Positions 128 through 61,832 of a stretch of DNA of 64,000 nt are shown piece by piece. Each line of letters begins with the position of its first letter. Positions within the stretch are counted from its first letter, which is position 1. The notes beneath the pieces were generated by a model, which ran no database searches, was not told the DNA's origin, and worked only from the letters and a program-made list of their open reading frames with translations. Made by a program: the position numbers and the translations under genes. Origin of the DNA: Clostridium beijerinckii (GTDB taxonomy: Bacteria; Bacillota; Clostridia; Clostridiales; Clostridiaceae); contig NZ_CP144906.1 in NCBI RefSeq assembly GCF_036699995.1, forward strand, positions 3,607,001-3,671,000, written 5' to 3'.

Positions 128-325
128 ACTTACAAAATATTACACACACTATGCGTGTATCGCTCTCTATTTTTAGGCCTTTTATTCTAATGTAGAAGGT
201 AACACATTACACTGAACTATAATTTTTTAGCTTTTATTATTCCTTTATTTTTATAAAATACTTTAAACCATTTGAATCACTTAATATAATTACTAATATA
301 TTTAGTTGCAGTACACATATATGCT
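128..325 (-). pseudogene. IS1595-type transposase remnant (C-terminal part), copy 1
   Basis: Read on the minus strand, this stretch aligns with the cleaner transposase fragment at 19887-20123. It still spells a recognisable ATKYISNYIK segment followed by an in-frame stop and FKW, where the other copy has ATKYLSNYVKWFKW. Stops and frame drift show that it is dead. It lies in a roughly 440-bp segment (about 90-530) that is repeated with substitutions at 2444-2866. The family call rests on the GVATKYL..Y..WF pattern typical of ISXO2/IS1595 transposase C-termini. Confidence 0.6.
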
Positions 326-390
326 CTGATATCATCTAAAATTTTGTGCCTCCAACAAAGTGATTTAGACATTCTAATATCAACTATCAT

Positions 391-447
391 GCCAAAATAA
401 AAATACCAACTTTTCTTAAATTGAAATGTTGGTATTTTTATTTTGGC
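391..447. terminator. Long A/T-rich hairpin inside the repeat unit downstream of the 97-aa gene
   Basis: A 20-base arm beginning GCCAAAATAAAAATACC pairs with its exact reverse complement around a 17-base loop. The same structure with a few changes sits at 2725-2781. It could terminate transcription in either direction; it belongs to the dispersed unit that ends at about 530 and is not gene-specific. Confidence 0.55.
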
Positions 448-622
448 TGTGTTTTAATATTATGTTGAAATATAGTTTGAAAAAATTATAGCTTAGATTG
501 TCCACCTATAATACTTAATATAAGAACATTGTGTCTTATGTCTAAATCATTCAAAAAAACATTGCAACTTCTAGATGATCATGCAATATTTCAATTTAGT
601 CTTTACTTGTATTAATTGTTAC

Positions 623-3499: not shown

Positions 3500-3605
3500 T
3501 AATTAAAATCCTTTCATCAAAACATAATTGATTTTTATTGCATAATCCTTTTTTAGTCAAGTTACTGCATAAAGCTAGATTTATATAAAAAAATATACTT
3601 CAACT

Positions 3606-3857
3606 AAAAAGTAGAACCATTTTTATGCAGCAGGCATTTGAAAATGAGCTGTTAAAAGTTATTAATTGTAGATTGTTCCACTAACGCTTGTGAAGTGATA
3701 GTCCAAAATTTTCTTTTGGGTTCTTGAACTTCCTAAGCGAATGTAATGAGTCGAGCTTCCCTAGGAAATTGGGAGCAAGCATTAGTGATGCAACCTGCAA
3801 TTTAGTACTTTCAGCAAAATTTTCATAGTCCTGCAAAATAACAATGTTTCTACTTTT
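3606..3857 (-). repeat. Long-hairpin element, family B, copy 0 (with tip extension)
   Basis: The left arm (GTAGAACCATTTTTATGCAG, then GCATTTGAAAATGAGCTG) and right arm (AATTTTCATAGTCCTGCAAAATAACAATG) form a long imperfect inverted repeat equivalent to those at 10745-11029 and 50752-50995. Between the arms lies the extension module with small stem-loops (CCAAAATTTTCTTTTGG; CTTCCTAAGCGAATG..) found also in copies at 9884, 34285 and 61435. It ends about 13 bp past the hydF stop codon, so it would be transcribed with hydF. Confidence 0.7.
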
Positions 3858-5108: not shown

Positions 5109-5395
5109 ATTATTTCTCCTTTGAATTAATTTTAATTACTCAAAAATATTTTTTTAAGTTGCCTATTCTATTATAATATAAAATATAAATATATACATTG
5201 CAAAATAATTCTTTATTTAAGGCACAATCAAAAAAATAATGGATCAGTATGTTTGTAGATTTCGCGTCATACTGTGCTAATAAATTTAGCTAATGGACTT
5301 GTTATGAACTTAATTTACTTTTTTGACTTATGCTAAATATTCAGCGCATTTTTTAAACTATTATTTTAGTTCATGTGCCTAATGCGGAGGTTAAG

Positions 5396-5632
5396 ATGAA
5401 AGATAAAGATAAAATTAAATTAACTAAAGAAAAACGTGAAGATATGATTTCTTCAATAAAAGAATATTTTTATAATGAGAGAGGAGAAGAATTAGGCGAT
5501 TTAGCGTCAAGCCAGATATTAAACTTTATCATAGATGAATTAGCATTAGAATTTTATAATCAAGGCGTCTATGATTCTTATAAATACATGACTAGAAGTA
5601 TTGATGATTTATTATCAGTACAAAAATATTAA
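5396..5632 (+). CDS. DUF2164 family protein
   Basis: A 78-residue soluble protein, helical and rich in Lys/Glu. The pattern KREDMISSIKEYFYNERGEE followed by LGDLASSQILNFIIDEL and YNQGVYDSYKYM matches the DUF2164 family of short bacterial proteins of unknown function. I choose the ATG at 5396 because GGAGG (5386-5390) sits five bases before it; an in-frame GTG at 5375 lies upstream of that site. It ends 12 bases before the TTG start of aspA, so the two are almost certainly co-transcribed. An imperfect hairpin (CAGTATG...CATACTG, 5246-5275) lies in the leader. Confidence 0.8.
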   Translation: MKDKDKIKLTKEKREDMISSIKEYFYNERGEELGDLASSQILNFIIDELALEFYNQGVYDSYKYMTRSIDDLLSVQKY

Positions 5633-7049: not shown

Positions 7050-7362
7050 TATAGATATCCAACTTAAAAATTCGACTTACTAAGCGAATATATTTACAAA
7101 GCTGCTACGTATTTAAGTTCGTATCTTCACTAGAAATCATAAATATATTTGTGTAGAAAACATTTGAAAATGAGCTGTTAAAGGTTCTTAGCTGTAGGTT
7201 GTTCCATTTTAGCTTGTCAAACTGAAAGTTGGAGCATGCTAAAGTGGATACAACCTGCTGCTTAGAACCTTCAGCGATATTTTCATAGCTTTTCGGAATC
7301 AAAATATTTATGATTTCGGTAAGTTACCACTTAAATTTAATTTTAAAGTTAGATATATAGAT
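7050..7362 (-). repeat. Long-hairpin element, family A, copy 1
   Basis: Ends TATAGATATCCAAC (7050) and GTTAGATATATAG (7348-7360) are roughly inverted. Inside, imperfect arms of about 85 bases (ATCATAAATATATTTGTG... and ...CAAAATATTTATGAT) face each other with a short tip and no extension module. The arms contain AAAATGAGCTGTTAAAGG and its counterpart CCTTCAGCGATATTTT. The open reading frame inside it simply reads through both arms and lacks a ribosome site. Confidence 0.75.
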
Positions 7363-9883: not shown

Positions 9884-10645
9884 TATTGATATCCAACTTT
9901 AAAACTACATTTATGTGATATCTTACCGAAATCATAAATATTTTGATTCCGAAAAGCTATGAAAATATCGCTGAAGGTTCTAAGCCGCAGGTTGTATCCA
10001 CTTTAGCATGCTCCAACATTCCTAGGGAAGCTCGACTCATTACATTCGCTGAGGAAGTTCGAGAACCCAAAATAAAATTTTGGACTCTCACTTCACATGC
10101 TGAAATGGAACAACCATTAGCGGAAACTCGACTCACGTTCGTTCGCTGAGTAAGCGATTCTCACCAAATCAAAGATTTGGGTTCTCTGCTTAAGAACCTT
10201 TAGCAGCTCATTTTCAAATGTTTTCTCCACAAATATATTTATGATTTCTAGTGAAGATATAAACTTTTGTTCCAGTTTCTAGGTAATTCTTATGGGTGAT
10301 TCTAAGGCTATAAAGTTCCACCCAAGATGCTGGCCTCAAAGGCTAGCTCTCACAGGGAAATTTCTGCTTACCAAATGTAAAATTTGAAGCATCACTTTTC
10401 GATTCTCACTTTTTGAACTAGCACATTTGGAATAGTTCAAAGGAAACTCGACTCACTTCGTTCACTGAGTAATTTCAATTGACCAAATCATAGATTTGGA
10501 ATTTCAATTAAGAATCACCCCCATCAAAATTACCAATGAAACATTCCATATTATGACCCTTGTGGTTACAAAAGTATATCACTCATTTCTGATTGAAGAA
10601 TATTTCATAGTCCAAGTATAGTTTATGATTGTCTTATATATATAT
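9884..10645. repeat. Composite of two hairpin elements: family A copy 2 joined to family C copy 1
   Basis: 9884-10258 is a family A element in forward orientation with the extension module (CTCGACTCATTACATTCGCTG and CCCAAAATAAAATTTTGG) and further CTCGACTCACGTTCG repeats. At about 10260 it passes without an intervening end directly into a reversed family C element (GTTCCAGTTTCTAGGTAATT ... TGAAACATTCCATATTATG). The two normal inner termini are missing, so this is a chimera and not two neighbouring insertions. No gene was found in this 1.2-kb gap other than the Spo0E-like gene at its far end. Confidence 0.7.
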
Positions 10646-10744: not shown

Positions 10745-11029
10745 CTATATGGATAAACAATTTAAGAACTTCATTTATACTTTACAATAAATACAATACT
10801 AGAAAGCAGAAACATTTTTATGCAGCAGGCATTGAAAATAAGCTGTTAAAAGCTCTTAATTGTAGGTTGTTCCATTAATGCTTGTCACAATGAAATTGGG
10901 AGCAAGCATTAATGGTGAAACCTGCAATTTAGCGCTTTCAGCGAAATTTTCATAGTCCTGTGAAATAACAATGTTTCTACTTTCGGTGGATTATATCATA
11001 AATCTAAATTTAACGTTGTTTATCTATAT
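10745..11029 (-). repeat. Long-hairpin element, family B, copy 1
   Basis: Ends TATATGGATAAACAA (10747) and TTGTTTATCTATATC (11016-11030) are inverted repeats. Arms AGCAGAAACATTTTTATGCA and TAACAATGTTTCTACTTTC pair imperfectly over about 85 bases, with the tip CACAATGAAATTGGGAG. This is the compact form without the extension module and gives the clearest view of family B boundaries. Confidence 0.75.
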
Positions 11030-13930: not shown

Positions 13931-14092
13931 GGCTTAATAATTTTCTGCATACTTCCTTAACAAATAAATCTTATGCTAATTATCTATATTTTATAAAGCG
14001 TTGCAAGCAAATATGATTTATTGGAATTAACGCATTTATTATATTACTAATTATAACCTCTTTTCATTTATTTTGCATAGTTTATAGATAAA

Positions 14093-14372
14093 CCAATTAT
14101 ACGATAGATTTATATTATGAAATATATCCCAACTAGAAATAAGAATTATGCTTTTGTGAAATGTTTCATTAGGAATTTGATGGCTCTGATTCTTAGATTA
14201 AAAGTTGTTCCAAGTATGCTAGTTCAAAGCTCGCCTTTGAGGCTAGCATGTTGGATGCAACTTGTAATCTTAGAATCATCCATCATAATTTCCTTAGAAA
14301 CTGGAACAACAGCATAATTCTTATTTCGGTGAGATATACGCATAAGTATAGACTATAGGTGGTTTATCTATA
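14093..14372 (+). repeat. Long-hairpin element, family C, copy 2 (compact form)
   Basis: Ends TATAGATAAACCAATTATA (14093) and GGTGGTTTATCTATA (14358-14372) are inverted repeats. Arms AATAAGAATTATGCTTTTG and CAGCATAATTCTTATTTC pair, and the pairing continues imperfectly through GGAATTTGATGG / CATCATAATTTCC to the tip at GCTAGTTCAAAGCTCGCC / TTGAGGCTAGC. This copy is the clearest family C element. Confidence 0.75.
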
Positions 14373-14453: not shown

Positions 14454-14517
14454 TTAACCGCAAGGGGATAGCTATTATATTGCGAAGAAATGGCTTTCTA
14501 TTATTTTATGTTACTAA

Positions 14518-14727
14518 TTACTTTAAACCTTGTTCGTAGCTTTCAATCATGTGTTTAACCATGTATCCGCCAACGTATCCATTTTGTCTTGAAGATAAAT
14601 TTCCTTTATCTTGATTTTCGTAATCATTTAATCCTACTTCTGAAGCAACCTCAGTTTTTAATCTGTTTAATCCTTGTTTTGCTTCTGGTACTAATGTTCT
14701 GTTTCTTCCACTATTGTTTGATGACAT
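14518..14727 (-). CDS. Alpha/beta-type small acid-soluble spore protein
   Basis: SASPs coat and protect DNA in the dormant spore and are cut by the germination protease GPR at outgrowth. The 69-residue protein has the conserved opening NNSGRNRTLVPEAKQGLNRL, the GPR site KTEVASEVGL, and GNLSSRQNGYVGGYMVKHMI near the end. I choose the ATG at 14727 (MSSNNSGRN) because GGAGG lies nine bases upstream and the paralogue at 43440 starts at the same place; an ATG six bases earlier is too close to it. The upstream block at about 14763-14825 is conserved before the other two SASP genes and probably holds a forespore (sigma-G) promoter. Confidence 0.95.
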   Translation of the reverse strand: MSSNNSGRNRTLVPEAKQGLNRLKTEVASEVGLNDYENQDKGNLSSRQNGYVGGYMVKHMIESYEQGLK

Positions 14728-14844
14728 ATACATCTACCTCCCTTAATTAATATTTTGTTTGCAGTAATATATTAACCAGTATGATAAATTATAATCTATA
14801 AAAATATTAACAAAAGTAGTACAGATAGCTTGTATTAGATAACT

Positions 14845-15474
14845 TTAGATAATCTTATGTTTTACTTTGAATCCTTTACCATCATTTATGATATTTATCC
14901 CTAAAATATCAGTAAATTGCTTAAGACTTTTCATATTATTTATGAATTTAATATTTTTTCTATCAATCACTTTTTCGATTACTTCTATTATATCTTTTTT
15001 CTGAGCAGAACTTAGTGTCATATAATTACTTAGGCACTCTCTATTAATATAAGTCAAAGTAGTCCATGCCTGCTCCTCTGATATACTATTTATATCCATT
15101 AACACCCACGTAAAATCTTTTCTTCTACTATTTTCAGGATATGCCTCTTTAAAGAACTCTATAAAATGATTTATTGGCTTTGGATCTTTTTCTTTAACAT
15201 ACTTTCCAAGTTGTGATTTTAAAGCATTCTTTAAGTACATTATTGTATTAGGTTTTATGGAATCCTTTAAACTATCAATTTTAGCGTAGATATAATTATA
15301 TGTATCTGTAATCTGTTCCTCACTTGCATTTCCCTTTTTTAATGCCTTTGTTAAATCAATGTATTCTAAGATACTTTTTTTAGAGCCAAGTTCTTTATTG
15401 TATAACTTTTCCCAAATTTCATGTGCAGTTAGACCTTCAAATTTATCGTTAACTAATGTTTCATCTTTATCCAT
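14845..15474 (-). CDS. Hypothetical helical protein
   Basis: A 209-residue soluble protein, predicted mostly alpha-helical, with no signal peptide or membrane segment. Recurrent features are charged helices (AHEIWEKLYNKELGSKKSI, NALKSQLGKYVKEKDPKPIN) and a C-terminal basic patch (GKGFKVKHKII). I do not recognise a family. It lies immediately upstream of the SASP promoter block on the same strand, but the block and a separate ribosome site (AGAGAGGAT) suggest independent transcription. Confidence 0.55.
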   Translation of the reverse strand: MDKDETLVNDKFEGLTAHEIWEKLYNKELGSKKSILEYIDLTKALKKGNASEEQITDTYNYIYAKIDSLKDSIKPNTIMYLKNALKSQLGKYVKEKDPKPINHFIEFFKEAYPENSRRKDFTWVLMDINSISEEQAWTTLTYINRECLSNYMTLSSAQKKDIIEVIEKVIDRKNIKFINNMKSLKQFTDILGINIINDGKGFKVKHKII

Positions 15475-16554: not shown

Positions 16555-16726
16555 ATTATCACCCCAAGACACAGAAGGTACTGTCAAAGTTTTTTATCTA
16601 ACTAAGGCAGCAACCCTTTAATTTTTCTTATTTTTTATATAAATAACTTGCCACCCCCAAAAAGTTAAGATATTTTATACTTGCAAAACAAAAACACTGA
16701 ACTAAAAAAGGAGGCAAGCTATTACC

Positions 16727-18160
16727 ATGATTAATAAGTTTCTTCTTGAAACTGTAATTTATCTTATTGAAATTATAAAGTATCTCATGACTTTGCTGGT
16801 TGGCAAAAACTTGCTTAAAAGCATTTCGGACGAACCTGTTAAGAAAGAATACCGAAAGCTTCAAGTAGATGATCAACCAATCTTTGATGTTCCCGAAAAA
16901 CTTAACTATAAGCTTCTAATAGCTGAATATGAGTTTAAGCACGGCAAAGAATTTGCTCCTGTGAAACCTCGCAAAAACAAAGCGTTAGCTCCTAAGGATG
17001 TTATCTGTCCTAAGTGTGGTGCTCCACATACCTATCTTTACGATAATAACGGAGGCCGAGGACAATATCTTTGCAAAGTCTGTGATACCACATTCAATCC
17101 TAAAAATTACTATCAGAAATCCATAGTGTTAAGATGTCCTCACTGCAGTAAAACACTTGAAAGAATCAAGGCGCGTAAGGATTTCTACGTTTATAAGTGT
17201 AAGAATGATAATTGCTCTTTTTACCAAAATAATCTTAAATCAATGACAAAATCTGAAAAACAAGATTTTAAGAAGAATCCTGGTAAGTTCAAAGTTAGAT
17301 ACATATTTAGAGATTTCACTTTTGACTTTAAGCCACTTTCTAAAGAAAGTCCGGTAAAATCAAAGGTTTCTCTTCCAAACATTATGATTTCTTCTTACAC
17401 CTTAGGACTCATTCTAACTTACTACGTTAACTACGGTTTATCTTCCAGAAAGACAGCTGCATTGCTTAAAGATATTCATGATATTAAAATATCTCATCAA
17501 GCAATTTTAAACTATGTTAATGCCGTTTCAATTGTAGTTAAGCCATTTATAGATAACTACGATTATAAACTTTCTGACTCTTTCTGCGGCGATGAAACCT
17601 ACATAAAAGTTAACGGTAAGTGGAACTATATTTTCTTCTTTTTTGATGCTGTTAAAAAGATTATTCTATCTTACAGAGTATCACCACATAGAGATACCGA
17701 AACGGCTGTAAAAGCCATCGATGATGTTCTAAGTAAGTTAAAAGAAATACCTGAAGATCTTAATCTTATAACTGATGGTAACCCTATATATCTTCTTGCA
17801 CAGCACTTCTTTGCAAGCCATAGTATAAAATTCGATGTTACTCAAGTTATAGGCTTAACCAATAAAGATGAAGTTTCAAAAGAATATAGGCCATTGAAGC
17901 AAATTATTGAACGTCTTAACCGAACCTTTAAAGGCAATTATAGAGCTACTACTGGCTTCGGAAGTCCTAACGGGTCGGTTGCATTTGTAACTATGTTTGT
18001 GGCATACTTTAACTTTCTAAGACCACATTCTGCCCTTGAAGGCAAAACTCCTGTAATCCTTGAAGAGTTAGAGTCAATGTCCAACATGCCTACTAGATGG
18101 TGCAAATTTATTGAACTATCTCAAGACTTTGTTCTAAATAACTGTACAATAACTGCCTAA
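16727..18160 (+). CDS. DDE transposase with N-terminal zinc ribbons (IS6/IS240-like catalytic domain)
   Basis: A 477-residue transposase. Residues 94-119 (CPKC...CKVC) and 137-163 (CPHC...CKNDNC) form two zinc-binding ribbons likely to bind DNA. Residues 219-265 look like a helix-turn-helix region (YGLSSRKTAALLKDIHDI). The catalytic core has D289 in GDETYIKVNGKWNYI, the HRD motif SPHRDTETA (319-327), D350 in ITDGNP and E395 in IIERLNRTFKG, ending with FNFLRPHSALEGKTP, an arrangement typical of the IS240/rve-type DDE fold. Start at 16727 follows AAAGGAGG. The length (IS6 enzymes are about 230 residues) and the double zinc ribbon set it apart. Apparently intact and probably active. Confidence 0.92.
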   Translation: MINKFLLETVIYLIEIIKYLMTLLVGKNLLKSISDEPVKKEYRKLQVDDQPIFDVPEKLNYKLLIAEYEFKHGKEFAPVKPRKNKALAPKDVICPKCGAPHTYLYDNNGGRGQYLCKVCDTTFNPKNYYQKSIVLRCPHCSKTLERIKARKDFYVYKCKNDNCSFYQNNLKSMTKSEKQDFKKNPGKFKVRYIFRDFTFDFKPLSKESPVKSKVSLPNIMISSYTLGLILTYYVNYGLSSRKTAALLKDIHDIKISHQAILNYVNAVSIVVKPFIDNYDYKLSDSFCGDETYIKVNGKWNYIFFFFDAVKKIILSYRVSPHRDTETAVKAIDDVLSKLKEIPEDLNLITDGNPIYLLAQHFFASHSIKFDVTQVIGLTNKDEVSKEYRPLKQIIERLNRTFKGNYRATTGFGSPNGSVAFVTMFVAYFNFLRPHSALEGKTPVILEELESMSNMPTRWCKFIELSQDFVLNNCTITA

Positions 18161-19120: not shown

Positions 19121-19203
19121 TAGGCTATGCTTTAATATAATGTTGAAATATAGCCTATAAAAATTATAAGTGGGATTTCCCACCTACAATACTTAATATA
19201 TAT
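19121..19203. repeat. Dispersed repeat unit (third copy of the right part of the 440-bp unit)
   Basis: The stretch GCTTTAATATAATGTTGAAA through TTTCCCACCTACAATACTTAATA matches 450-525 and 2786-2866. As at those two sites, it lies directly downstream of a minus-strand gene, here the GNAT gene at 19234. It may be the outer end of an IS1595-type element. Confidence 0.55.
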
Positions 19204-24497: not shown

Positions 24498-24800
24498 TAT
24501 AGATATCCAACTCTAAAACTGAATTTATGTAGTAACTTACCGAAATCATAAATATTTTGATTCCGAAAAGCTATGAAAATATCGCTGAAGGTTCTAAGCA
24601 GCAGGTTGTATCCACTTTAGCATGCTCCAACTTTCAGTTTGACAAGCTAAAATGGAACAACCTACAACTAAGAACCTTTAACAGCTCATTTTCAAATGTT
24701 TTCTCCACAAATATATTTATGATTTCTAGTGAAGATACAAACTTTAAATATCAGCAACTTTGTAAATATGTTCATCTAATTTGTAAATTGTTTATCTATA
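24498..24800 (+). repeat. Long-hairpin element, family A, copy 3 (compact reference copy)
   Basis: Ends TATAGATATCCAAC (24498) and TTGTTTATCTATA (24788-24800). Arms of about 85 bases: ATCATAAATATTTTGATTCC.. with GAAGGTTCTAAGCAGCAGG face ..CTAAGAACCTTTAACAGCTC and TATTTATGAT. The tip is only AACTTTCAGTTTGACAAG. Pairing is roughly 70-75 percent by eye. Because no extension is present, this copy shows the basic architecture best. Confidence 0.78.
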
Positions 24801-24955
24801 TGGATAAACAATATATAACTTAGACTTATACAACATTTACCCGAAAGTATAAATCAAATTTTCAATGAGGTATCTATATAGATAAACCAATTATAATATA
24901 TAATTTGGTCAATTGAAATTACTAAGTGACGAAGTGAGTCGACTTTCCTTCTCTA
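24797..24955. repeat. Two decayed hairpin elements abutting copy A3
   Basis: 24797-24879 begins ATGGATAAACAATA and ends GGTATCTATA: the two outer ends of an element with the hairpin deleted. 24880-24955 begins TATAGATAAACCAATTATAA and continues with ATTTGGTCAATTGAAATTAC and the GAAGTGAGTCGA module, an internal part of family C, with the arms lost. The end of A3 and the start of the next unit form a perfect palindrome ATTGTTTATC-TATA-GGATAAACAAT-like junction. Confidence 0.6.
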
Positions 24956-25167: not shown

Positions 25168-26778
25168 ATGAAAACAAAAATAGAAATAATACTAGGATTC
25201 TTAGAGTCTGGAAAAACTAACTTTATAAATTCTATGATTAAAAATTGCGATTTACAAAATGAAACTATTGTTGTCATCCAAGATGAATTTGGACAAAGCA
25301 AAATAAAGAATGAATTTATAAATTCAAATGAAAATATGAATATTATAAACATTGAAAATACTTCTAATGAAGAAATTAATGAAAAATATATAAACAAAAT
25401 TTTAGAAATATATTCTCCCCATAGAATATTTATTGAAGTTAATGGTATGAAAAATTCCAACTCTATAATTAATATGTTTAATAATAAAAATTTAAGAAAG
25501 TTATGCAGAATTGACGACATCGTAACCTTAATTGATACGAAAAAGTTCTTCATTTATTTCAGAAATATGAAAAGTATGTTAAGTACTCAAATCTATAATA
25601 GCAAGACAATAATATTAAACAATATAAATAATATCAACAAAAAAGACTTCTTAAATATTCAGAATCAAATAAAAAGAATTAATGAAACTGCTAATTTATT
25701 AGAGCATGCGCCTTCATTAAATATTAAAGAAATACATCAAGACGAATATAGAGAAATTAGTAGCCATAGTTTTTCTGCAATTAAAACCATGTTTTACATG
25801 AGCCTTCTAATATTATCATTTACGTGTTTTGCTGCATTATCTATTACCGATAGTAGTGGGTATTCATACTATTTGGACAAGTTTAAAAATTTTTACACTG
25901 TATTTATTAGCATATTAATTCAAGGTATCCCATTTATCTTAGTTGGAAGTTTTGTATCTGCAATAATACAAATTTGCATCCCAAAGGATACATTTATCAA
26001 ATTTTTTCCAAGAAATATATTCTTGTCATGTGTTATTGCAGCTCTTGCAGGCTTACTCTTCCCAATATGTGATTGTGGAACTATTCCTATTGTTAAGGGA
26101 CTCATAAAGAAAAAAGTTCCTATAGCTGCTAGTATTACTTTCATGTTATCTGCCCCAATAGTAAATCCAATAGCTATAATTTCAACGATATATGCCTTTC
26201 AAGGTATGAAAGCGGTTGTAATTTATAGGATTGTTGCAGGCATAATAATCTCTATTCTAGTTGGTTTAATTATGCATTTTCTAACTAGGAAAGACGATGA
26301 TATATTAAATATAAATAATGATGGACTAAGTTGCGAATGCGGTTTTTGTAATGATGACTATGATTATTCAAGGAATAAGCCGCAAAAAATCAGAGCAGTA
26401 TTTATTCACACTGGCGATGAATTTTTTAATATAGGAAAGTTTATGATTATTGGTACATTTTTATCTAGCATTTTTCAAAATATAGTATCTGCCGGTACCA
26501 ACATTCCAATTTTGAGCGGTAATATAAGCCCCTTAATTGCAATGATATTATTGTCTTTTGTGCTTTCAGTTTGTTCAACATCAGATGCATTCATTGCTAA
26601 AGGATTTTTAAAACAATTCTCAGTTAACTCTGTAATGGGCTTTTTAGTTGTTGGCCCTATGCTTGATATAAAAAATACAATCATGATTTTTGGAAACTTC
26701 AAAAGAAAATTTGCCATAAAACTAATATTTTTTATTATTGTAGTATCATTTAGTATTCTTATTAACCTTAGACTATAG
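25168..26778 (+). CDS. Fusion of a COG0523/CobW-like GTPase domain with an ArsP_1/DUF318-type permease
   Basis: A 536-residue protein. Residues 1-190 form a P-loop domain with Walker A GFLESGKT (10-17) in the context typical of COG0523 metal-chaperone GTPases (IIxGFLxSGKT), but the CxCC metal motif and a clear NKxD are missing. Residues 205-536 form a permease with eight or more membrane segments, FPICDCGTIPIVKGL (298-312) and SAPIVNP (328-334), plus a cytoplasmic loop with CECGFC (389-394). ATG at 25168 follows AAGGAG. Its partner TIGR03943 gene lies downstream at 27413. The pair probably handles a metal such as zinc (inference). Its stop codon TAG lies in the end of hairpin element A4. Confidence 0.8.
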   Translation: MKTKIEIILGFLESGKTNFINSMIKNCDLQNETIVVIQDEFGQSKIKNEFINSNENMNIINIENTSNEEINEKYINKILEIYSPHRIFIEVNGMKNSNSIINMFNNKNLRKLCRIDDIVTLIDTKKFFIYFRNMKSMLSTQIYNSKTIILNNINNINKKDFLNIQNQIKRINETANLLEHAPSLNIKEIHQDEYREISSHSFSAIKTMFYMSLLILSFTCFAALSITDSSGYSYYLDKFKNFYTVFISILIQGIPFILVGSFVSAIIQICIPKDTFIKFFPRNIFLSCVIAALAGLLFPICDCGTIPIVKGLIKKKVPIAASITFMLSAPIVNPIAIISTIYAFQGMKAVVIYRIVAGIIISILVGLIMHFLTRKDDDILNINNDGLSCECGFCNDDYDYSRNKPQKIRAVFIHTGDEFFNIGKFMIIGTFLSSIFQNIVSAGTNIPILSGNISPLIAMILLSFVLSVCSTSDAFIAKGFLKQFSVNSVMGFLVVGPMLDIKNTIMIFGNFKRKFAIKLIFFIIVVSFSILINLRL

Positions 26779-27090
26779 ATAAACCAACTTAGACCTGAAC
26801 TTATGCATATAGCTCACCGAAATCATAAATATTTTGTTCCGAAAAGCTATGAAAATATCACTGAAGGTTCTAAGCAGCAGGTTGCATCCACTTTAGCATG
26901 CTCCAACTTTCAGTTTGACAAGCTAAAATGGAACAACCTACAGCTAAGAACCTTTAACAGCTCATTTTCAAATGTTTTCTCCACAAATATATTTATGATT
27001 TCTAGTGAAGATATGAGCTTAAAGTCTTAGCAACTTTGTAAATATGTTCATCTAATAAGTCCAATTCTTGAATTAGATCTATATAACCAC
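26774..27090 (+). repeat. Long-hairpin element, family A, copy 4
   Basis: Begins TATAGATAAACCAACTTAGA at 26774; right part runs through TTTCTAGTGAAGATATGAGC to about 27090 (GATCTATATAACC). Compact form without extension. Its left end overlaps the last codons of the permease gene (stop TAG at 26776-26778), and it fills the gap between the permease and the TIGR03943 gene, so it would be in the middle of that operon's mRNA. Confidence 0.75.
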
Positions 27091-27254
27091 CAATTAATCC
27101 AAGACTCTATTGTTTACTCAGCAATGAGAAGAATTCTAGTAATAATGGCATATATTTAATAGAAGGTGTGTACAGATCATTGACCTAGATTCAATATATT
27201 AGTAAAAAATGTGTCCATAATATTAACCTAAGTCCACAGATCTATGCCATATTA

Positions 27255-27326
27255 GAATATAAGAATATAAGAATATAAGAATATAAGAATATAAGAATAT
27301 AAGAATATAAGAATATAAGAATATAA
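27255..27326. repeat. Tandem octanucleotide repeat (GAATATAA)x9
   Basis: Nine perfect copies of GAATATAA followed by a partial tenth. It lies 87 bp before the TIGR03943 start codon. The unit length (8) is not a multiple of 3 but the array is intergenic, so copy-number change would alter promoter or leader spacing and not a reading frame. Confidence 0.95.
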
Positions 27327-27412
27327 GAATATAGCAATTTTAGAATATCCTCTTATCTTAGGCAATATATTTTATCTTAAAATACTCTTTAATTTGATAT
27401 GGAGATGAAGAT

Positions 27413-29165: not shown

Positions 29166-29199
29166 AAGCAAAGCACTAAGAATCTTCTTAGTGCTTTAC
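29166..29199 (-). terminator. Terminator of SASP gene 2
   Basis: AAAGCACTAAGAA and TTCTTAGTGCTTT form a perfect stem, with a T tract on the minus strand. It ends 10 bp from the SASP stop codon. Confidence 0.8.
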
Positions 29200-29208
29200 T
29201 TTTATTTA

Positions 29209-29415
29209 TTATAGTCCTTGTTCGTAGCTTTCTATCATTCTTTTTACCATTTCTCCACCAACGCTACCGTTTTGTCTTGAAGAAAGGTTTCCTTTATCCA
29301 TGCTTTCATAATTGCTTAATCCAACTTCTGAAGCAACCTCTGTTTTTAATCTGTTTAATCCTTGTTTTGCTTCTGGTACTAATGTTCTGTTTCTTCCACT
29401 ATTGTTTGAAGCCAT
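29209..29415 (-). CDS. Alpha/beta-type small acid-soluble spore protein
   Basis: A 68-residue SASP that starts MASNNSGRNRTLVPEAKQGL and carries the GPR cleavage segment KTEVASEVGL and GNLSSRQNGSVGGEMVKRMI. It differs from the copy at 14518 at positions after the protease site (SNYESMDKG) and ends in GL without the final lysine. GGAGG precedes the ATG. The region from about 29450 to 29525 contains the same upstream block as the other SASP genes, the likely site of a forespore (sigma-G) promoter. Confidence 0.95.
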   Translation of the reverse strand: MASNNSGRNRTLVPEAKQGLNRLKTEVASEVGLSNYESMDKGNLSSRQNGSVGGEMVKRMIESYEQGL

Positions 29416-29548
29416 ATGAATCTACCTCCCTTAATTTTTAATTTTGTTTGGCAGTAATATCTTAACCACTATCACAAAATATAACCTATAAAAATGTTAA
29501 CAGAAGTAGTACAGATAGCTTGTATTAGTTAATTTTAGATATTCCTCC

Positions 29549-31570: not shown

Positions 31571-31982
31571 TATAGATACAACAACTACAGCCTATACTTA
31601 TGCGTATGCCTCACCGAAATGAATAATATACTTTTGTTCCAGTTTCTAGGTAATTCTAACGGGTGATTCTAAGGCTATAAAGTTGCACCCAAAGTGCTAG
31701 CCTCAAAGAACAAGCGCTCACAGAGAAAGTTCGAAGAACGAAATATAAAATGCTCATAGAGAAAGTTCTGCTTACCAAATGTAAAATTTGGAGCATCACT
31801 TTTCGATTCTCACTTTTTGAACTAGCACATTTGGAACAACTTATAGCCAAAGAATCACATCCATCATAATTACCAATGAAACATTCCATATTATGACCCT
31901 TGTGGTTACAAAAGTATATTACTCATTTCTAGTTAAGATATATCTCATAGTATAAATCTAACTTATAATTGAATTATCTATA
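31571..31982 (-). repeat. Long-hairpin element, family C, copy 3 (variant tip)
   Basis: Reverse orientation: begins with CACCGAAATGAATAATATAC-type arm (31611), runs through GTTCCAGTTTCTAGGTAATT and GGTGATTCTAAGGCTATAAAG, a modified tip with AAAGTTCGAAGAACGAAAT and GCTTACCAAATGTAAAATTTGG, then the return arm with TGAAACATTCCATATTATG and ends near TTGAATTATCTATA. A second TTGGTTTATCTAT end lies at about 32052-32065. Fills the gap between X1 and the lysozyme gene. Confidence 0.7.
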
Positions 31983-34284: not shown

Positions 34285-34600
34285 TATAGATATCCGACTT
34301 CAAATCTAGATTTATGTGATAACTTACCGAAATCATAAATATTTTGATTCCGAAAAGCTATGAAAATATCGCTGAAGGTTCTAAGCAGCAGGTTGTATCC
34401 ACTTTAGCATGCTCCAACTTTCATAAGGAAGCTCGACTCATTACATTCGCTGAGGAAGTTCGAGAACCCAAAATAAAATTTTGGACTCTCACTTCACAAG
34501 CTAAAATGGAACAACCTATTGCTAAGAACCTTTAACAGCTCATTTTCAAATGTTTTCTACACAAATATATTTATGATTTCAGGTGAAGATATGGATTTAT
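34285..34600 (+). repeat. Long-hairpin element, family A, copy 5 (with tip extension)
   Basis: Starts TATAGATATCCGACTTC at 34285. The arms match those of copy 3, but the tip carries the extension module (AAGCTCGACTCATTACATTC with GCTGAGGAAGTTCGAG, and CCCAAAATAAAATTTTGG). The right arm ends near TATTTATGATTTCAGGTGAA; the far end is worn. Confidence 0.75.
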
Positions 34601-37933: not shown

Positions 37934-38106
37934 TTAACTCCCCCCTGATTTATCATGGTACTGTCAAAGTTTTTTATCTAACTAAGGCAGCAACCCTTTA
38001 ATTTTTCTTATTTTTTATATAAATAACTTGCCACCCCCAAAAAGTTAAGATATTTTATACTTGCAAAACAAAAACACTGAACTAAAAAAGGAGGCAAGCT
38101 ATTACC

Positions 38107-39540
38107 ATGATTAATAAGTTTCTTCTTGAAACTGTAATTTATCTTATTGAAATTATAAAGTATCTCATGACTTTGCTGGTTGGCAAAAACTTGCTTAAAA
38201 GCATTTCGGACGAACCTGTTAAGAAAGAATACCGAAAGCTTCAAGTAGATGATCAACCAATCTTTGATGTTCCCGAAAAACTTAACTATAAGCTTCTAAT
38301 AGCTGAATATGAGTTTAAGCACGGCAAAGAATTTGCTCCTGTGAAACCTCGCAAAAACAAAGCGTTAGCTCCTAAGGATGTTATCTGTCCTAAGTGTGGT
38401 GCTCCACATACCTATCTTTACGATAATAACGGAGGCCGAGGACAATATCTTTGCAAAGTCTGTGATACCACATTCAATCCTAAAAATTACTATCAGAAAT
38501 CCATAGTGTTAAGATGTCCTCACTGCAGTAAAACACTTGAAAGAATCAAGGCGCGTAAGGATTTCTACGTTTATAAGTGTAAGAATGATAATTGCTCTTT
38601 TTACCAAAATAATCTTAAATCAATGACAAAATCTGAAAAACAAGATTTTAAGAAGAATCCTGGTAAGTTCAAAGTTAGATACATATTTAGAGATTTCACT
38701 TTTGACTTTAAGCCACTTTCTAAAGAAAGTCCGGTAAAATCAAAGGTTTCTCTTCCAAACATTATGATTTCTTCTTACACCTTAGGACTCATTCTAACTT
38801 ACTACGTTAACTACGGTTTATCTTCCAGAAAGACAGCTGCATTGCTTAAAGATATTCATGATATTAAAATATCTCATCAAGCAATTTTAAACTATGTTAA
38901 TGCCGTTTCAATTGTAGTTAAGCCATTTATAGATAACTACGATTATAAACTTTCTGACTCTTTCTGCGGCGATGAAACCTACATAAAAGTTAACGGTAAG
39001 TGGAACTATATTTTCTTCTTTTTTGATGCTGTTAAAAAGATTATTCTATCTTACAGAGTATCACCACATAGAGATACCGAAACGGCTGTAAAAGCCATCG
39101 ATGATGTTCTAAGTAAGTTAAAAGAAATACCTGAAGATCTTAATCTTATAACTGATGGTAACCCTATATATCTTCTTGCACAGCACTTCTTTGCAAGCCA
39201 TAGTATAAAATTCGATGTTACTCAAGTTATAGGCTTAACCAATAAAGATGAAGTTTCAAAAGAATATAGGCCATTGAAGCAAATTATTGAACGTCTTAAC
39301 CGAACCTTTAAAGGCAATTATAGAGCTACTACTGGCTTCGGAAGTCCTAACGGGTCGGTTGCATTTGTAACTATGTTTGTGGCATACTTTAACTTTCTAA
39401 GACCACATTCTGCCCTTGAAGGCAAAACTCCTGTAATCCTTGAAGAGTTAGAGTCAATGTCCAACATGCCTACTAGATGGTGCAAATTTATTGAACTATC
39501 TCAAGACTTTGTTCTAAATAACTGTACAATAACTGCCTAA
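38107..39540 (+). CDS. DDE transposase with N-terminal zinc ribbons, second copy
   Basis: Identical in sequence to the 477-residue product at 16727-18160: two zinc ribbons (C94/C97/C116/C119 and C137/C140/C158/C163), a helix-turn-helix region around 235-262, and the catalytic triad D289, D350, E395 with HRD at 320-322. The frame is open and the ribosome site AAAGGAGG is intact, so this copy should also be functional. The transposase is convergent with bglF and divergent from the esterase gene. Confidence 0.92.
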   Translation: MINKFLLETVIYLIEIIKYLMTLLVGKNLLKSISDEPVKKEYRKLQVDDQPIFDVPEKLNYKLLIAEYEFKHGKEFAPVKPRKNKALAPKDVICPKCGAPHTYLYDNNGGRGQYLCKVCDTTFNPKNYYQKSIVLRCPHCSKTLERIKARKDFYVYKCKNDNCSFYQNNLKSMTKSEKQDFKKNPGKFKVRYIFRDFTFDFKPLSKESPVKSKVSLPNIMISSYTLGLILTYYVNYGLSSRKTAALLKDIHDIKISHQAILNYVNAVSIVVKPFIDNYDYKLSDSFCGDETYIKVNGKWNYIFFFFDAVKKIILSYRVSPHRDTETAVKAIDDVLSKLKEIPEDLNLITDGNPIYLLAQHFFASHSIKFDVTQVIGLTNKDEVSKEYRPLKQIIERLNRTFKGNYRATTGFGSPNGSVAFVTMFVAYFNFLRPHSALEGKTPVILEELESMSNMPTRWCKFIELSQDFVLNNCTITA

Positions 39541-43376: not shown

Positions 43377-43439
43377 TAACCGCAAATTGAGATTTACAGT
43401 TTTTTAAAGAAAACTTTTTTCTACGTTCTTAGTTCTTAA

Positions 43440-43649
43440 TTACTTTAAACCTTGTTCGTAGCTTTCAATCATGTGTTTAACCATGAAACCGCCAACGCTT
43501 CCGTTTTGTCTTGAAGAAAGGTTTCCTTTATCTTGATTTTCATAGTCTTGTAATCCAATTTCTGAAGCAACCTCAGTTTTTAATCTGTTTAACCCTTGTT
43601 TTGCTTCTGGTATTAATGTTCTGTTTCTTCCACTATTGTTTGAAGACAT
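43440..43649 (-). CDS. Alpha/beta-type small acid-soluble spore protein
   Basis: A 69-residue SASP starting MSSNNSGRNRTLIPEAKQGL, with the GPR cleavage segment KTEVASEIGL and GNLSSRQNGSVGGFMVKHMI. Ends ESYEQGLK like the copy at 14518. GGAGG precedes the ATG at nine bases. The upstream block (about 43683-43745; GGTTAATATATTACTGCC on the minus strand) is shared with the other two SASP genes and is the likely location of a forespore (sigma-G) promoter. Confident family call; which paralogue of which named SASP it is cannot be told. Confidence 0.95.
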   Translation of the reverse strand: MSSNNSGRNRTLIPEAKQGLNRLKTEVASEIGLQDYENQDKGNLSSRQNGSVGGFMVKHMIESYEQGLK

Positions 43650-43800
43650 ATATATCTACCTCCCTTAAATTAATATAAATTTTGCTTGGCAGTAATATAT
43701 TAACCATTATGATGAATTATAACCTATAAAAATATTAACAAAAGTAGCATCATAAATTATAATTAGAAAAAACTTTCAATACCTTGTACTAAAATTCATA

Positions 43801-50751: not shown

Positions 50752-50995
50752 TATAGATAATCCACCGAAAGTAGAAACATTGTTATTTCGCAGGACTATG
50801 AAAATTTCGCTGAAAGTGCTAAATTGCAGGTTGCATCACTAATGCTTGCTCCCATTTTCATTGTGACAAGCATTAGTGGAACAACCTACAATCAAGAGCT
50901 TTTAACAGCTTATTTTCAATGCCTGCTGCATAAAAATGTTTCTGCTTTCTAGCATAGTATTTATTTCATAGTATAAATCATAGCTATGTATAAGT
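50752..50995 (+). repeat. Long-hairpin element, family B, copy 2
   Basis: Begins TATAGATAATCCACCGAAAG; arms AGAAACATTGTTATTTCGC and GCATAAAAATGTTTCTGC pair imperfectly over about 85 bases, with a small tip CCCATTTTCATTGTGAC and no extension. Its right end runs straight into the left end of family C copy 4. Confidence 0.75.
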
Positions 50996-51351
50996 TATAG
51001 ATAAGCCAATTATAAGTTAGATTTATACTATGAAATATATCCCAACTAGAAATGGGTAATATATTTTTGTGGAATGTTTCATTGGTAATTTTGATGGATG
51101 TGATTCTTAATTGAAATTCCAAATCTATGATTTGGTCAATTGAAATTACTCAGTGAACGAAGTGAGTCGAGTTTCCTTTGAACTATTCCAAATGTGCTAG
51201 TTCACAGCTTGTTCTTTGAGGCTAGCACTTTGGGTGCAACTTTATAGCCTTAGAATCACCCATCAGAATTACCTAGAAACTGGAACAAAAGTATATTATT
51301 CATTTCGGCGAGTTATATGCATAAGTTCAGGTCTTAGTTGGATTATCTATA
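50996..51351 (+). repeat. Long-hairpin element, family C, copy 4 (one-arm extension)
   Basis: Ends TATAGATAAGCCAATTATAAG and TTGGATTATCTATA. The left arm carries the extra module (CCAAATCTATGATTTGG and ACTCAGTGAACGAAGTGAGT), while the right arm does not, so the hairpin is asymmetric. The right end abuts the nudC terminator at 51352. Confidence 0.75.
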
Positions 51352-59785: not shown

Positions 59786-59795
59786 ATTAATACTT

Positions 59796-59940
59796 CTCAC
59801 AACGAAATTGAGAGCAATCACTAGTAGTGCACTCTGTAATTTAGCCCTTTCAGCGAAATTTTCATATCCCTGTGAAATAACAATGTTTCTCCTTTCGGTA
59901 GATTGTTTCATAAGACTAAGCTATATATTGTTTATCTATA
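59796..59940 (-). repeat. Half of a family B hairpin element, copy 3
   Basis: Holds only one arm and the tip: CACAACGAAATTGAGAGC, then TTTCAGCGAAATTTTCATA, TAACAATGTTTCTCC and the end TTGTTTATCTATA. The opposite arm is missing, so no hairpin can form. Evidence that these elements decay by loss of an arm. Confidence 0.65.
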
Positions 59941-59980
59941 TGAATATCTTTCTTTATAATTATTTCTAAGAAAATAAATA

Positions 59981-61434: not shown

Positions 61435-61832
61435 TAGCGATAAACAATAACAATTCAACTTACTTGATGAACAGATTTACAAAGTTGCTAAAACCTTGAG
61501 TTCATATCTTCACTAGAAATCATAAATATATTTGTAACCACAAGGGTCATAATATGGAGAAAACATTTGAAAATGAGCTGTTAAAGGTTCTTAGCTGTAG
61601 GTTGTTCCATTTTAGCTTGTGAAGTGAGAGTCCAAAATTTCATTTTGGGTTCTCGAACTTCCTCAGCGAATGTAATGAGTCGAGCTTCCCTAGGAAAGTT
61701 GGAACATGCTAAAATGGATACAACCTGCTGCTTAGAACCTTCAGCGATATTTTCATAGCTTTTCGGAATCAAAATATTTATGATTTCGGTAAGGTATACG
61801 CATAAGTATAGATTATAGTTGAGTTATCTATA
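61435..61832 (-). repeat. Long-hairpin element, family A, copy 6 (mosaic with family C)
   Basis: Begins with TAGCGATAAACAATAAC and ends TGAGTTATCTATA. It has family A arms with the extension module (GGGTTCTCGAACTTCCTCAG, TCCAAAATTTCATTTTGG), but at 61533-61560 it holds GTAACCACAAGGGTCATAAT, which is otherwise found in family C (C1 and C3). So it is a mosaic of the two families. Confidence 0.75.

What the first reader, a model, noticed from the sequence alone, without database searches (positions are those of the whole stretch)
24498..24800. A superfamily of long imperfect hairpin elements (families A, B, C) scattered through the window
Seen: at least twelve copies (3606-3857, 7050-7362, 9884-10645 [two], 10745-11029, 14093-14372, 24498-24800, 26774-27090, 31571-31982, 34285-34600, 50752-50995, 50996-51351, 59796-59940, 61435-61832). 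All have outer ends like TATAGATAAACC/GGTTTATCTATA and inner arms of about 85 bases whose left and right halves are inverted but diverged, with arm motifs shared across families (GGTTGTATCC / GGTTGTTCC). They carry no transposase. Inference: non-autonomous elements or a structured RNA family that spreads and is kept foldable. Conserved mismatches would argue for a functional RNA.
Basis: partly seen in the sequence, partly recalled or inferred. Interest (0 to 1): 0.75.

Follow-up and report, generated by a model that had tools for sequence, protein, structure and literature searches.

The report
Hairpin jumping-DNA family in Clostridium
Short, gene-less jumping DNA pieces found in large numbers in a group of Clostridium carry one shared long hairpin that has kept its shape while its letters changed, and the same hairpin also sits inside a second, unrelated kind of jumping DNA, which suggests that the hairpin itself is being kept and passed around.

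Summary
The repeats are real: 14 pieces in the window and 161 (A 61, B 63, C 37) in the window plus 99 stretches read from this 5.55 Mb Clostridium beijerinckii-group genome. They are MITEs. A close genome (G031) has an empty site showing a TA target duplication, and holds an IS630-family transposon with matching ends. The other half fails: the interior ~190-nt hairpin is not in the IS630 copy, 19 of 29 pairs show both-side changes, and in three families of intact copies the hairpin is better conserved than the stretches beside it (better than the very ends in A, narrowly in B, not in C). A covariance model finds it in 18 of 68 genomes of the genus and in no other genus among 225 genomes of the order. 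In two other species the same core sits in a different MITE with 8-bp target duplications. Against a one-strand RNA: G-U pairs (49) do not exceed A-C mismatches (61); no orientation or gene-context bias. At shared insertion sites two genomes carry different hairpins or segments, so modules are exchanged. Best reading: IS630-type MITEs carrying an exchangeable fold-back module. Why the fold is kept is inferred, not shown.

The parts
24498..24800 (+). family A element (MITE), both ends present; hairpin about 24541-24728, inner core 24570-24698
   Evidence: present at the same site in G031 with two extra internal modules
24799..24878 (.). 80-bp stretch with an element end on each side, read as an internally deleted copy abutting the A element through a shared TA
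   Evidence: read by eye
3603..3856 (-). family C hairpin with 70-nt module in the loop, no ends; 3' of hydF
7050..7359 (-). family A element; absent from the site in G031 and G032
9884..10267 (+). family A element with 70-nt modules in the loop and in the right arm, fused to the B piece that follows
10264..10548 (+). family B piece with 70-nt modules
10748..11029 (-). family C element, both ends; the same-site copy in G031 has a changed apical stem, changed in step on both arms, and a changed outer part on one side
14083..14372 (-). family B element, both ends; clean empty site in G031 showing TA duplication
26774..27056 (+). family A element; left outer module differs between G000 and G031 at the same site
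31571..31982 (+). family B element with loop module; the same-site copy in G031 has a shorter loop module and another module in an arm
34285..34591 (+). family A element with loop module; in G031 the hairpin is absent, with GATTTATGTG direct repeats flanking it in G000
50757..50978 (+). family C element, right end missing
50996..51351 (-). family B element with 70-nt module in an arm
59786..59941 (-). half of a family C element
61449..61832 (-). family A element with 70-nt loop module

Best explanation
These are MITEs (short non-autonomous DNA transposons) of the form TA[TAGATA...TATCTA]TA, moved in trans by an IS630 (Tc1/mariner-like) transposase. Inside the ends sits a ~190-nt imperfect hairpin module that evolves as a unit: stems change in matched pairs, while some loop and neighbouring letters (in CTAA/TTAAGA, GG-AA-CAAC, GACAAG) stay nearly fixed. 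Copies swap whole hairpins, outer stretches and ~20- and ~70-nt modules with each other, probably by recombination or by repair of excision gaps from other copies. The same core has also got into MITEs of another transposon type. I infer that the fold acts as fold-back DNA, or as RNA read from either strand, and is kept because source copies that carry it spread or persist better. Shown: insertion at TA, matching IS630 ends, covariation, module differences at shared sites, sharing between two MITE types. Inferred: that this IS630 moves them, the exchange mechanism, and the benefit of the fold.
For: Empty sites: B at 14083 and A at 7050 are absent in G031 and G032; at 14083 the flanks rejoin at a single TA. 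IS630 partner: L211 859-2058, two overlapping ORFs; ORF2 is over the NCBIfam IS630 cut-off, 107.3 vs 100 bits (ORF1 80, below it), and is DDE_3, E 6.6e-27; its ends match MITE A ends. No target duplication longer than TA in 72 script-called two-ended rows, at least one of them mis-paired. Covariation: 19 of 29 pairs with both-side changes; four of five measures reached by 0 of 500 shuffles; slides of 1-3 columns fall from 94% to 30-50% paired. Hairpin vs flanking stretches, intact copies: A (11) 0.96 vs 0.73/0.84, B (19) 0.88 vs 0.78/0.85, C (5) 0.91 vs 0.73/0.77. Module mixing: A hairpins with left module L1 (31 of 45) and L2 (10 of 45); differences at shared sites. Second carrier type: elements of mostly 224-226 bp in G005/G030, 8-bp duplications exact in 10 of 17; a sequence-only profile from other genomes' cores matches 18 of 18 such loci at E 1.8e-8 to 9.4e-6, with nothing in reversed controls.
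Against: The IS630 copy is seen only in G031 (one) and as contig-end parts in G032, with weaker relatives elsewhere; the window's own genome has none at E 1e-10 and its DDE_3 relic shows no such ends. ORF1 and ORF2 of the partner are in different frames, so its activity is unknown. One covariation measure, further pair types, is not above shuffles (143 of 500). Unpaired internal columns carry on average no more information (1.03 bits) than paired ones (1.17). The hairpin is not better conserved than the 12-nt ends in family C, and only narrowly than the left end in B. Inner-hairpin-free copies also spread, so the full hairpin is not needed to jump. No function of the hairpin was measured.
Confidence: 0.6

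Rival explanations
1. A true structured non-coding RNA family: the hairpin is transcribed from one strand and binds a protein or is processed, and the transposon ends only spread it.
For: Strong pair covariation and some near-fixed loop letters; the model scores one strand about twice as high as the other (e.g. L106 141.8 vs 60.8 bits); found in 18 of 68 genomes of the genus.
Against: At 29 pairs in 72 representatives G-U 49, A-C 61 of 2038 cells (one pair, columns 54/89, gives 15 of the A-C and one, 23/119, gives 13 of the G-U), where a one-strand RNA should favour G-U; a small tRNA control gave 8 G-U and 0 A-C (6 tRNAs). Orientation to tandem genes 24 vs 20. No Rfam match at gathering score in the window.
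Confidence: 0.15
2. A cis-acting RNA hairpin in read-through transcripts, working in either orientation as an RNase III site or stability element, as reported for Neisseria Correia/NEMIS and Yersinia ERIC.
For: Intergenic (0 of 60 pieces inside ORFs of 90 aa or more), very stable fold; precedent in reviews PMC10969869 and PMC2229807 (passages).
Against: No preference for convergent or 3'-end positions (8 convergent, 8 divergent, 44 tandem vs background 55, 56, 198). Does not by itself explain the near-fixed loop letters.
Confidence: 0.3
3. Ordinary MITEs; the paired changes come from arm-to-arm copying in quasi-palindromes and from exchange among copies, with no selection on the fold.
For: At 10748 an apical stem segment differs between two close genomes on both arms at once while the outer stems are nearly unchanged (one outer stretch differs too); differences in modules at shared sites and mixed modules point to exchange.
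Against: Arm copying should erase the mismatches, yet some are shared across families and species; neutral decay should not spare the hairpin more than the stretches beside it, although exchange among copies could.
Confidence: 0.27

Closest known systems
RUP (Streptococcus pneumoniae), proposed to be moved by IS630-Spn1
   Same: Short intergenic element, TA target, ends shared with an IS630-family transposon (PMC2229807, PMC3049150, passages only)
   Different: RUP is a simple 107-bp element; here the interior is a ~190-nt hairpin in several covarying families with exchangeable modules, its core also found in another MITE type
Correia/NEMIS (Neisseria)
   Same: TA at the termini; ~107- and ~155-bp forms differing by a 50-bp internal sequence; RNase III processing reported (passages)
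   Different: The Neisseria end sequence (recalled, not from a call) shares only TATAG; interiors were not compared by sequence here
ERIC/IRU (enterobacteria)
   Same: Small element with TA at its termini and a 7-bp end repeat (table in PMC2229807); imperfect palindrome (recalled)
   Different: Other hosts; not compared by sequence here; no transposase partner named in the passages seen
BOX (S. pneumoniae)
   Same: Modular, variable-length repeat with extensive predicted structure (passages)
   Different: BOX is built of boxA/B/C modules; here whole hairpins and outer modules are exchanged

Membership tests
MITE of an IS630-family transposon | 2-bp TA target duplication | tested here: met
   Empty site at 14083 in G031; no longer duplication in 72 rows
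MITE of an IS630-family transposon | Ends shared with an IS630 element in the same or a very close genome | tested here: met
   L211 in G031, which is 94-98% identical to the window over most aligned blocks; none in G000 itself
MITE of an IS630-family transposon | Moved by that transposase | not testable with these tools
   needs an assay
Structured RNA family | Compensatory changes above controls | tested here: met
   one of five measures not above shuffles
Structured RNA family | G-U tolerated more than A-C on the functional strand | tested here: not met
   49 vs 61 in 72 representatives; 133 vs 138 in 173 cores
Structured RNA family | Transcribed as a discrete RNA | not testable with these tools
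   no expression data
Any Rfam 15 family | Score at or above the gathering threshold | tested here: not met
   window; three elements with relaxed threshold gave only hits below gathering, mostly to microRNA hairpin models
RUP | 107-bp RUP sequence and IS630-Spn1 ends | not tested
   RUP sequence was not fetched; length and host differ

The most novel reading that the evidence does not exclude
The hairpin is itself a selfish module, a passenger of passengers: it moves between MITEs of unrelated transposon types (a TA-inserting IS630 type and an 8-bp-duplication type) by conversion or template switching, and is selected for its fold and loop letters because carriers that hold it multiply or survive better.
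Probability: 0.25. Interest if true: 0.8.

Novelty: new variant of a known kind. Interest (0 to 1): 0.6.

Why it matters
MITEs are usually explained by their ends. Here the interior folds with covariation, is better conserved than the stretches between it and the ends, and is shared by MITEs with different target duplications. If the fold helps spread or tolerance, it gives a testable case of selection on the interior of a non-autonomous element, and a reason why some bacteria hold so many long hairpins. It also bears on genome work in solvent-producing Clostridium, where these elements differ and delete between close genomes.

Tried and rejected
IS630-like genes in the window's own genome: only a decayed relic without such ends. 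TATAGATAWNCCAA sites in the genome (56): the solitary ones that I read (13 loci) were broken copies, genes or solitary ends, none an autonomous copy. Target duplication longer than TA: none. Terminator-like position: no bias in gene context; promoter and terminator scans were not run. A possible autonomous partner for the 8-bp type in G005 (L289) turned out to be a thiamine-pathway kinase gene lying between solitary ends. Relaxed Rfam scans of three elements gave only hits below gathering score, mostly to microRNA models. In the ortholog comparison (21 clusters placed) two placements, L009 and L046, look spurious and were not used; 16 of 21 were printed there; 3603 and 9884 were read; L014, L025 and L074 were not read. 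A first comparison of hairpin and ends (30 A copies, some truncated) made the ends look worse (0.64-0.69) than the check on intact copies; the report uses, and because of it I lowered the novel case from 0.28 to 0.25 and the best explanation from 0.62 to 0.60, and raised the 'ordinary MITEs' rival from 0.25 to 0.27, in this version. Paper searches showed, by titles and abstract starts, no description of these Clostridium elements (one search listed 10 of 22); this holds only for that library and those terms.

Full report
OBSERVATION. The window lies at G000:C1:3607001-3671000 of a 5.55 Mb one-contig genome. Its hydF protein is 100% identical to that of genome G031, and the window aligns to G031 at 94-98% in most aligned blocks. 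All places in the finding hold hairpin pieces; I count 14. In the window and 99 fetched stretches there are 161 pieces, A 61, B 63, C 37; 112 span the core by script, a few of them cut short by inserts. These are lower bounds: the searches scored only 40 of 169-187 candidates.

ANATOMY. In the orientation of the A copy at 24498, an element reads: end TATAGATA; a left outer stretch of ~40 nt; the hairpin from ACCGAAA to TTTCTAG; a right outer stretch of ~50-75 nt; end TATCTATA. The hairpin has an outer stem, GAAAAT/ATTTTC in A and C, then inner stems broken by internal loops. Across 28 diverse cores the letters kept best include parts of CTAA/TTAAGA, GTTG-YAY-CC opposite GG-AA-CAAC, and GACAAG. 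On average, unpaired internal columns carry 1.03 bits and paired ones 1.17, so only some loop letters stand out. Optional inserts are a ~20-nt module in the right arm and a ~70-nt module in the apical loop or an arm. By an 80-nt distance rule the ~70-nt module was standalone in 12 of 29 places in the window and the fetched G031 stretches; one of the 12 (10442) lies in the fused A/B element.

MOBILITY. At 14083 G000 has ...GCATAGTT-TA[TAGATAAACC...GGTTTATCTA]TA-ATCA...; G031 and G032 have ...GCATAGTT-TA-ATCA.... At 7050 both relatives lack the A element; G032 keeps a TA there, G031 does not. In 72 script-called two-ended rows (at least one mis-paired) there is no duplication longer than TA, and several copies abut through one shared TA. 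G031 holds an IS630-family element (L211 859-2058) with two overlapping ORFs in different frames; ORF2 exceeds the NCBIfam IS630 cut-off, ORF1 alone does not. Its right end is nearly that of MITE A and its left end is similar. G032 has contig-end parts next to the same ends; G000 has no relative of this transposase at E 1e-10. Copies without the inner hairpin have spread: three 129-bp copies, 97-98% identical, at different sites with both ends. A second deletion type shares one junction in four copies that are otherwise 49-79% alike, so repeated deletion is possible there.

FOLD UNDER CONSTRAINT. RNAalifold on 28 cores gives 29 pairs, 19 with both-side changes. Against 500 shuffles four of five measures are never reached; the fifth, further pair types, is (143 of 500). 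Sliding the partner by 1-3 columns drops pairing from 94% to 30-50%. In 72 representatives (from 173 cores kept of 175) 22 of 29 pairs have at least two Watson-Crick types each seen in two or more sequences. In copies matched end to end the mean pairwise identity is, for left end, left outer, hairpin, right outer, right end: A (11 copies) 0.75, 0.73, 0.96, 0.84, 0.87; B (19) 0.87, 0.78, 0.88, 0.85, 0.79; C (5) 0.97, 0.73, 0.91, 0.77, 0.93. So the hairpin beats the stretches beside it in all three, beats the ends in A, narrowly in B, and not in C. A looser comparison of 30 A copies, some truncated, gave 0.92-0.97 against 0.64-0.77.

RNA OR DNA. On the canonical strand G-U pairs (49) do not exceed A-C mismatches (61) in 2038 cells, nor in the full set (133 vs 138). 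Six tRNAs gave 8 G-U and 0 A-C, a small control. Of 60 pieces in the window and 457 kb of G031 none has its middle in an ORF of 90 aa or more; contexts are tandem 44, divergent 8, convergent 8, close to background (198, 56, 55); orientation to tandem genes is 24 to 20. This argues against a one-strand RNA; it does not exclude RNA acting from either strand. Against this, the model scores the two strands very differently, which shows that the asymmetry of the hairpin is kept.

EXCHANGE. At shared sites G000 and G031 differ in modules: L043 holds B in one and A plus a short B in the other; 26774 differs mainly in the left outer module; 10748 differs in an apical stem, on both arms together, and in one outer stretch; 24498 and 31571 differ in internal modules; 9884 and the hydF site also differ in hairpin type. 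Among 122 classified copies, A hairpins (45) occur with left module L1 (31) and L2 (10), and C hairpins (28) with L2 (3) and L3 (11) and with R2 (7) and R3 (10).

DISTRIBUTION AND A SECOND CARRIER. The model R1 hits 18 of 68 genomes of the genus and 18 of 225 of the order, all in one of 56 genera (stricter filters, 15 candidates scored per genome). With deeper scoring it finds 90 matches in G042, 69 in G030 and 23 in G005. In G005 and G030, of 19 loci examined 17 had both ends GGCTATGTTTTAA-like by script, 13 of them 224-226 bp long; 8-bp duplications were 8 of 8 identical in 10 and 7 of 8 in 2; the total was 106 of 136 against a shuffled mean of 64.6 and maximum of 86 (L266 and L276 look mis-paired by the script and are counted in). 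A sequence-only profile trained without these lineages matches 18 of 18 such loci at E 1.8e-8 to 9.4e-6, with no match in reversed sequence; the copies are related to each other, so this is one homology, not 18. No transposase with these ends was found. In G042 the two copies read in full are about 750-820 bp with an inverted pair of hairpins next to the ends; their target duplication was not settled.

KNOWN OR NEW. Ends, TA target and a partner IS630 place the elements with RUP-like MITEs; Correia, ERIC and BOX are further analogues (passages of PMC10969869, PMC2229807, PMC3049150). No Rfam family fits at gathering score. Five paper searches listed no account of these Clostridium elements. 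What I have not seen described there is a covarying hairpin interior that is kept better than its surroundings and is shared by MITEs with different target duplications. I rate it a new variant of a known kind.

Noticed in passing
window 10025-10189, 31716-31817, 34427-34495, 51109-51176; near an element at 24895-24948: A ~70-nt two-hairpin module (GGAAACTCGACTCA...CTGAGTAA...CCAAATC..GATTTGG) sits in loops and arms of the elements and, in G031, also far from any of them; it looks like a separate small mobile repeat.
   Followed up: partly
window 14510-14854, 29198-29544, 43432-43782: Three intergenic repeats of about 345 bp, 74-92% identical to the reference copies, with no sign of the hairpin families.
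   Followed up: no
window 325-530, 2659-2864, 19123-19200: Another repeat family, 82-91% identical to the reference copies.
   Followed up: no
window 16577-18160 and 37957-39540: Two 477-aa ORFs at 16727 and 38107 lie in a repeat whose reported 300 bp are 100% identical; probably a recent insertion sequence.
   Followed up: no
window 27249-27336: Tandem array of an 8-bp unit (ATATAAGA) after the element at 26774.
   Followed up: no
window 5220-5598: About 380 bp between hydF and its neighbour is absent in G031.
   Followed up: partly
G044 (HydF 90% identical to the window's): A 6.1 Mb relative with no model hit at E 1e-3, although several genomes about as close have dozens.
   Followed up: no
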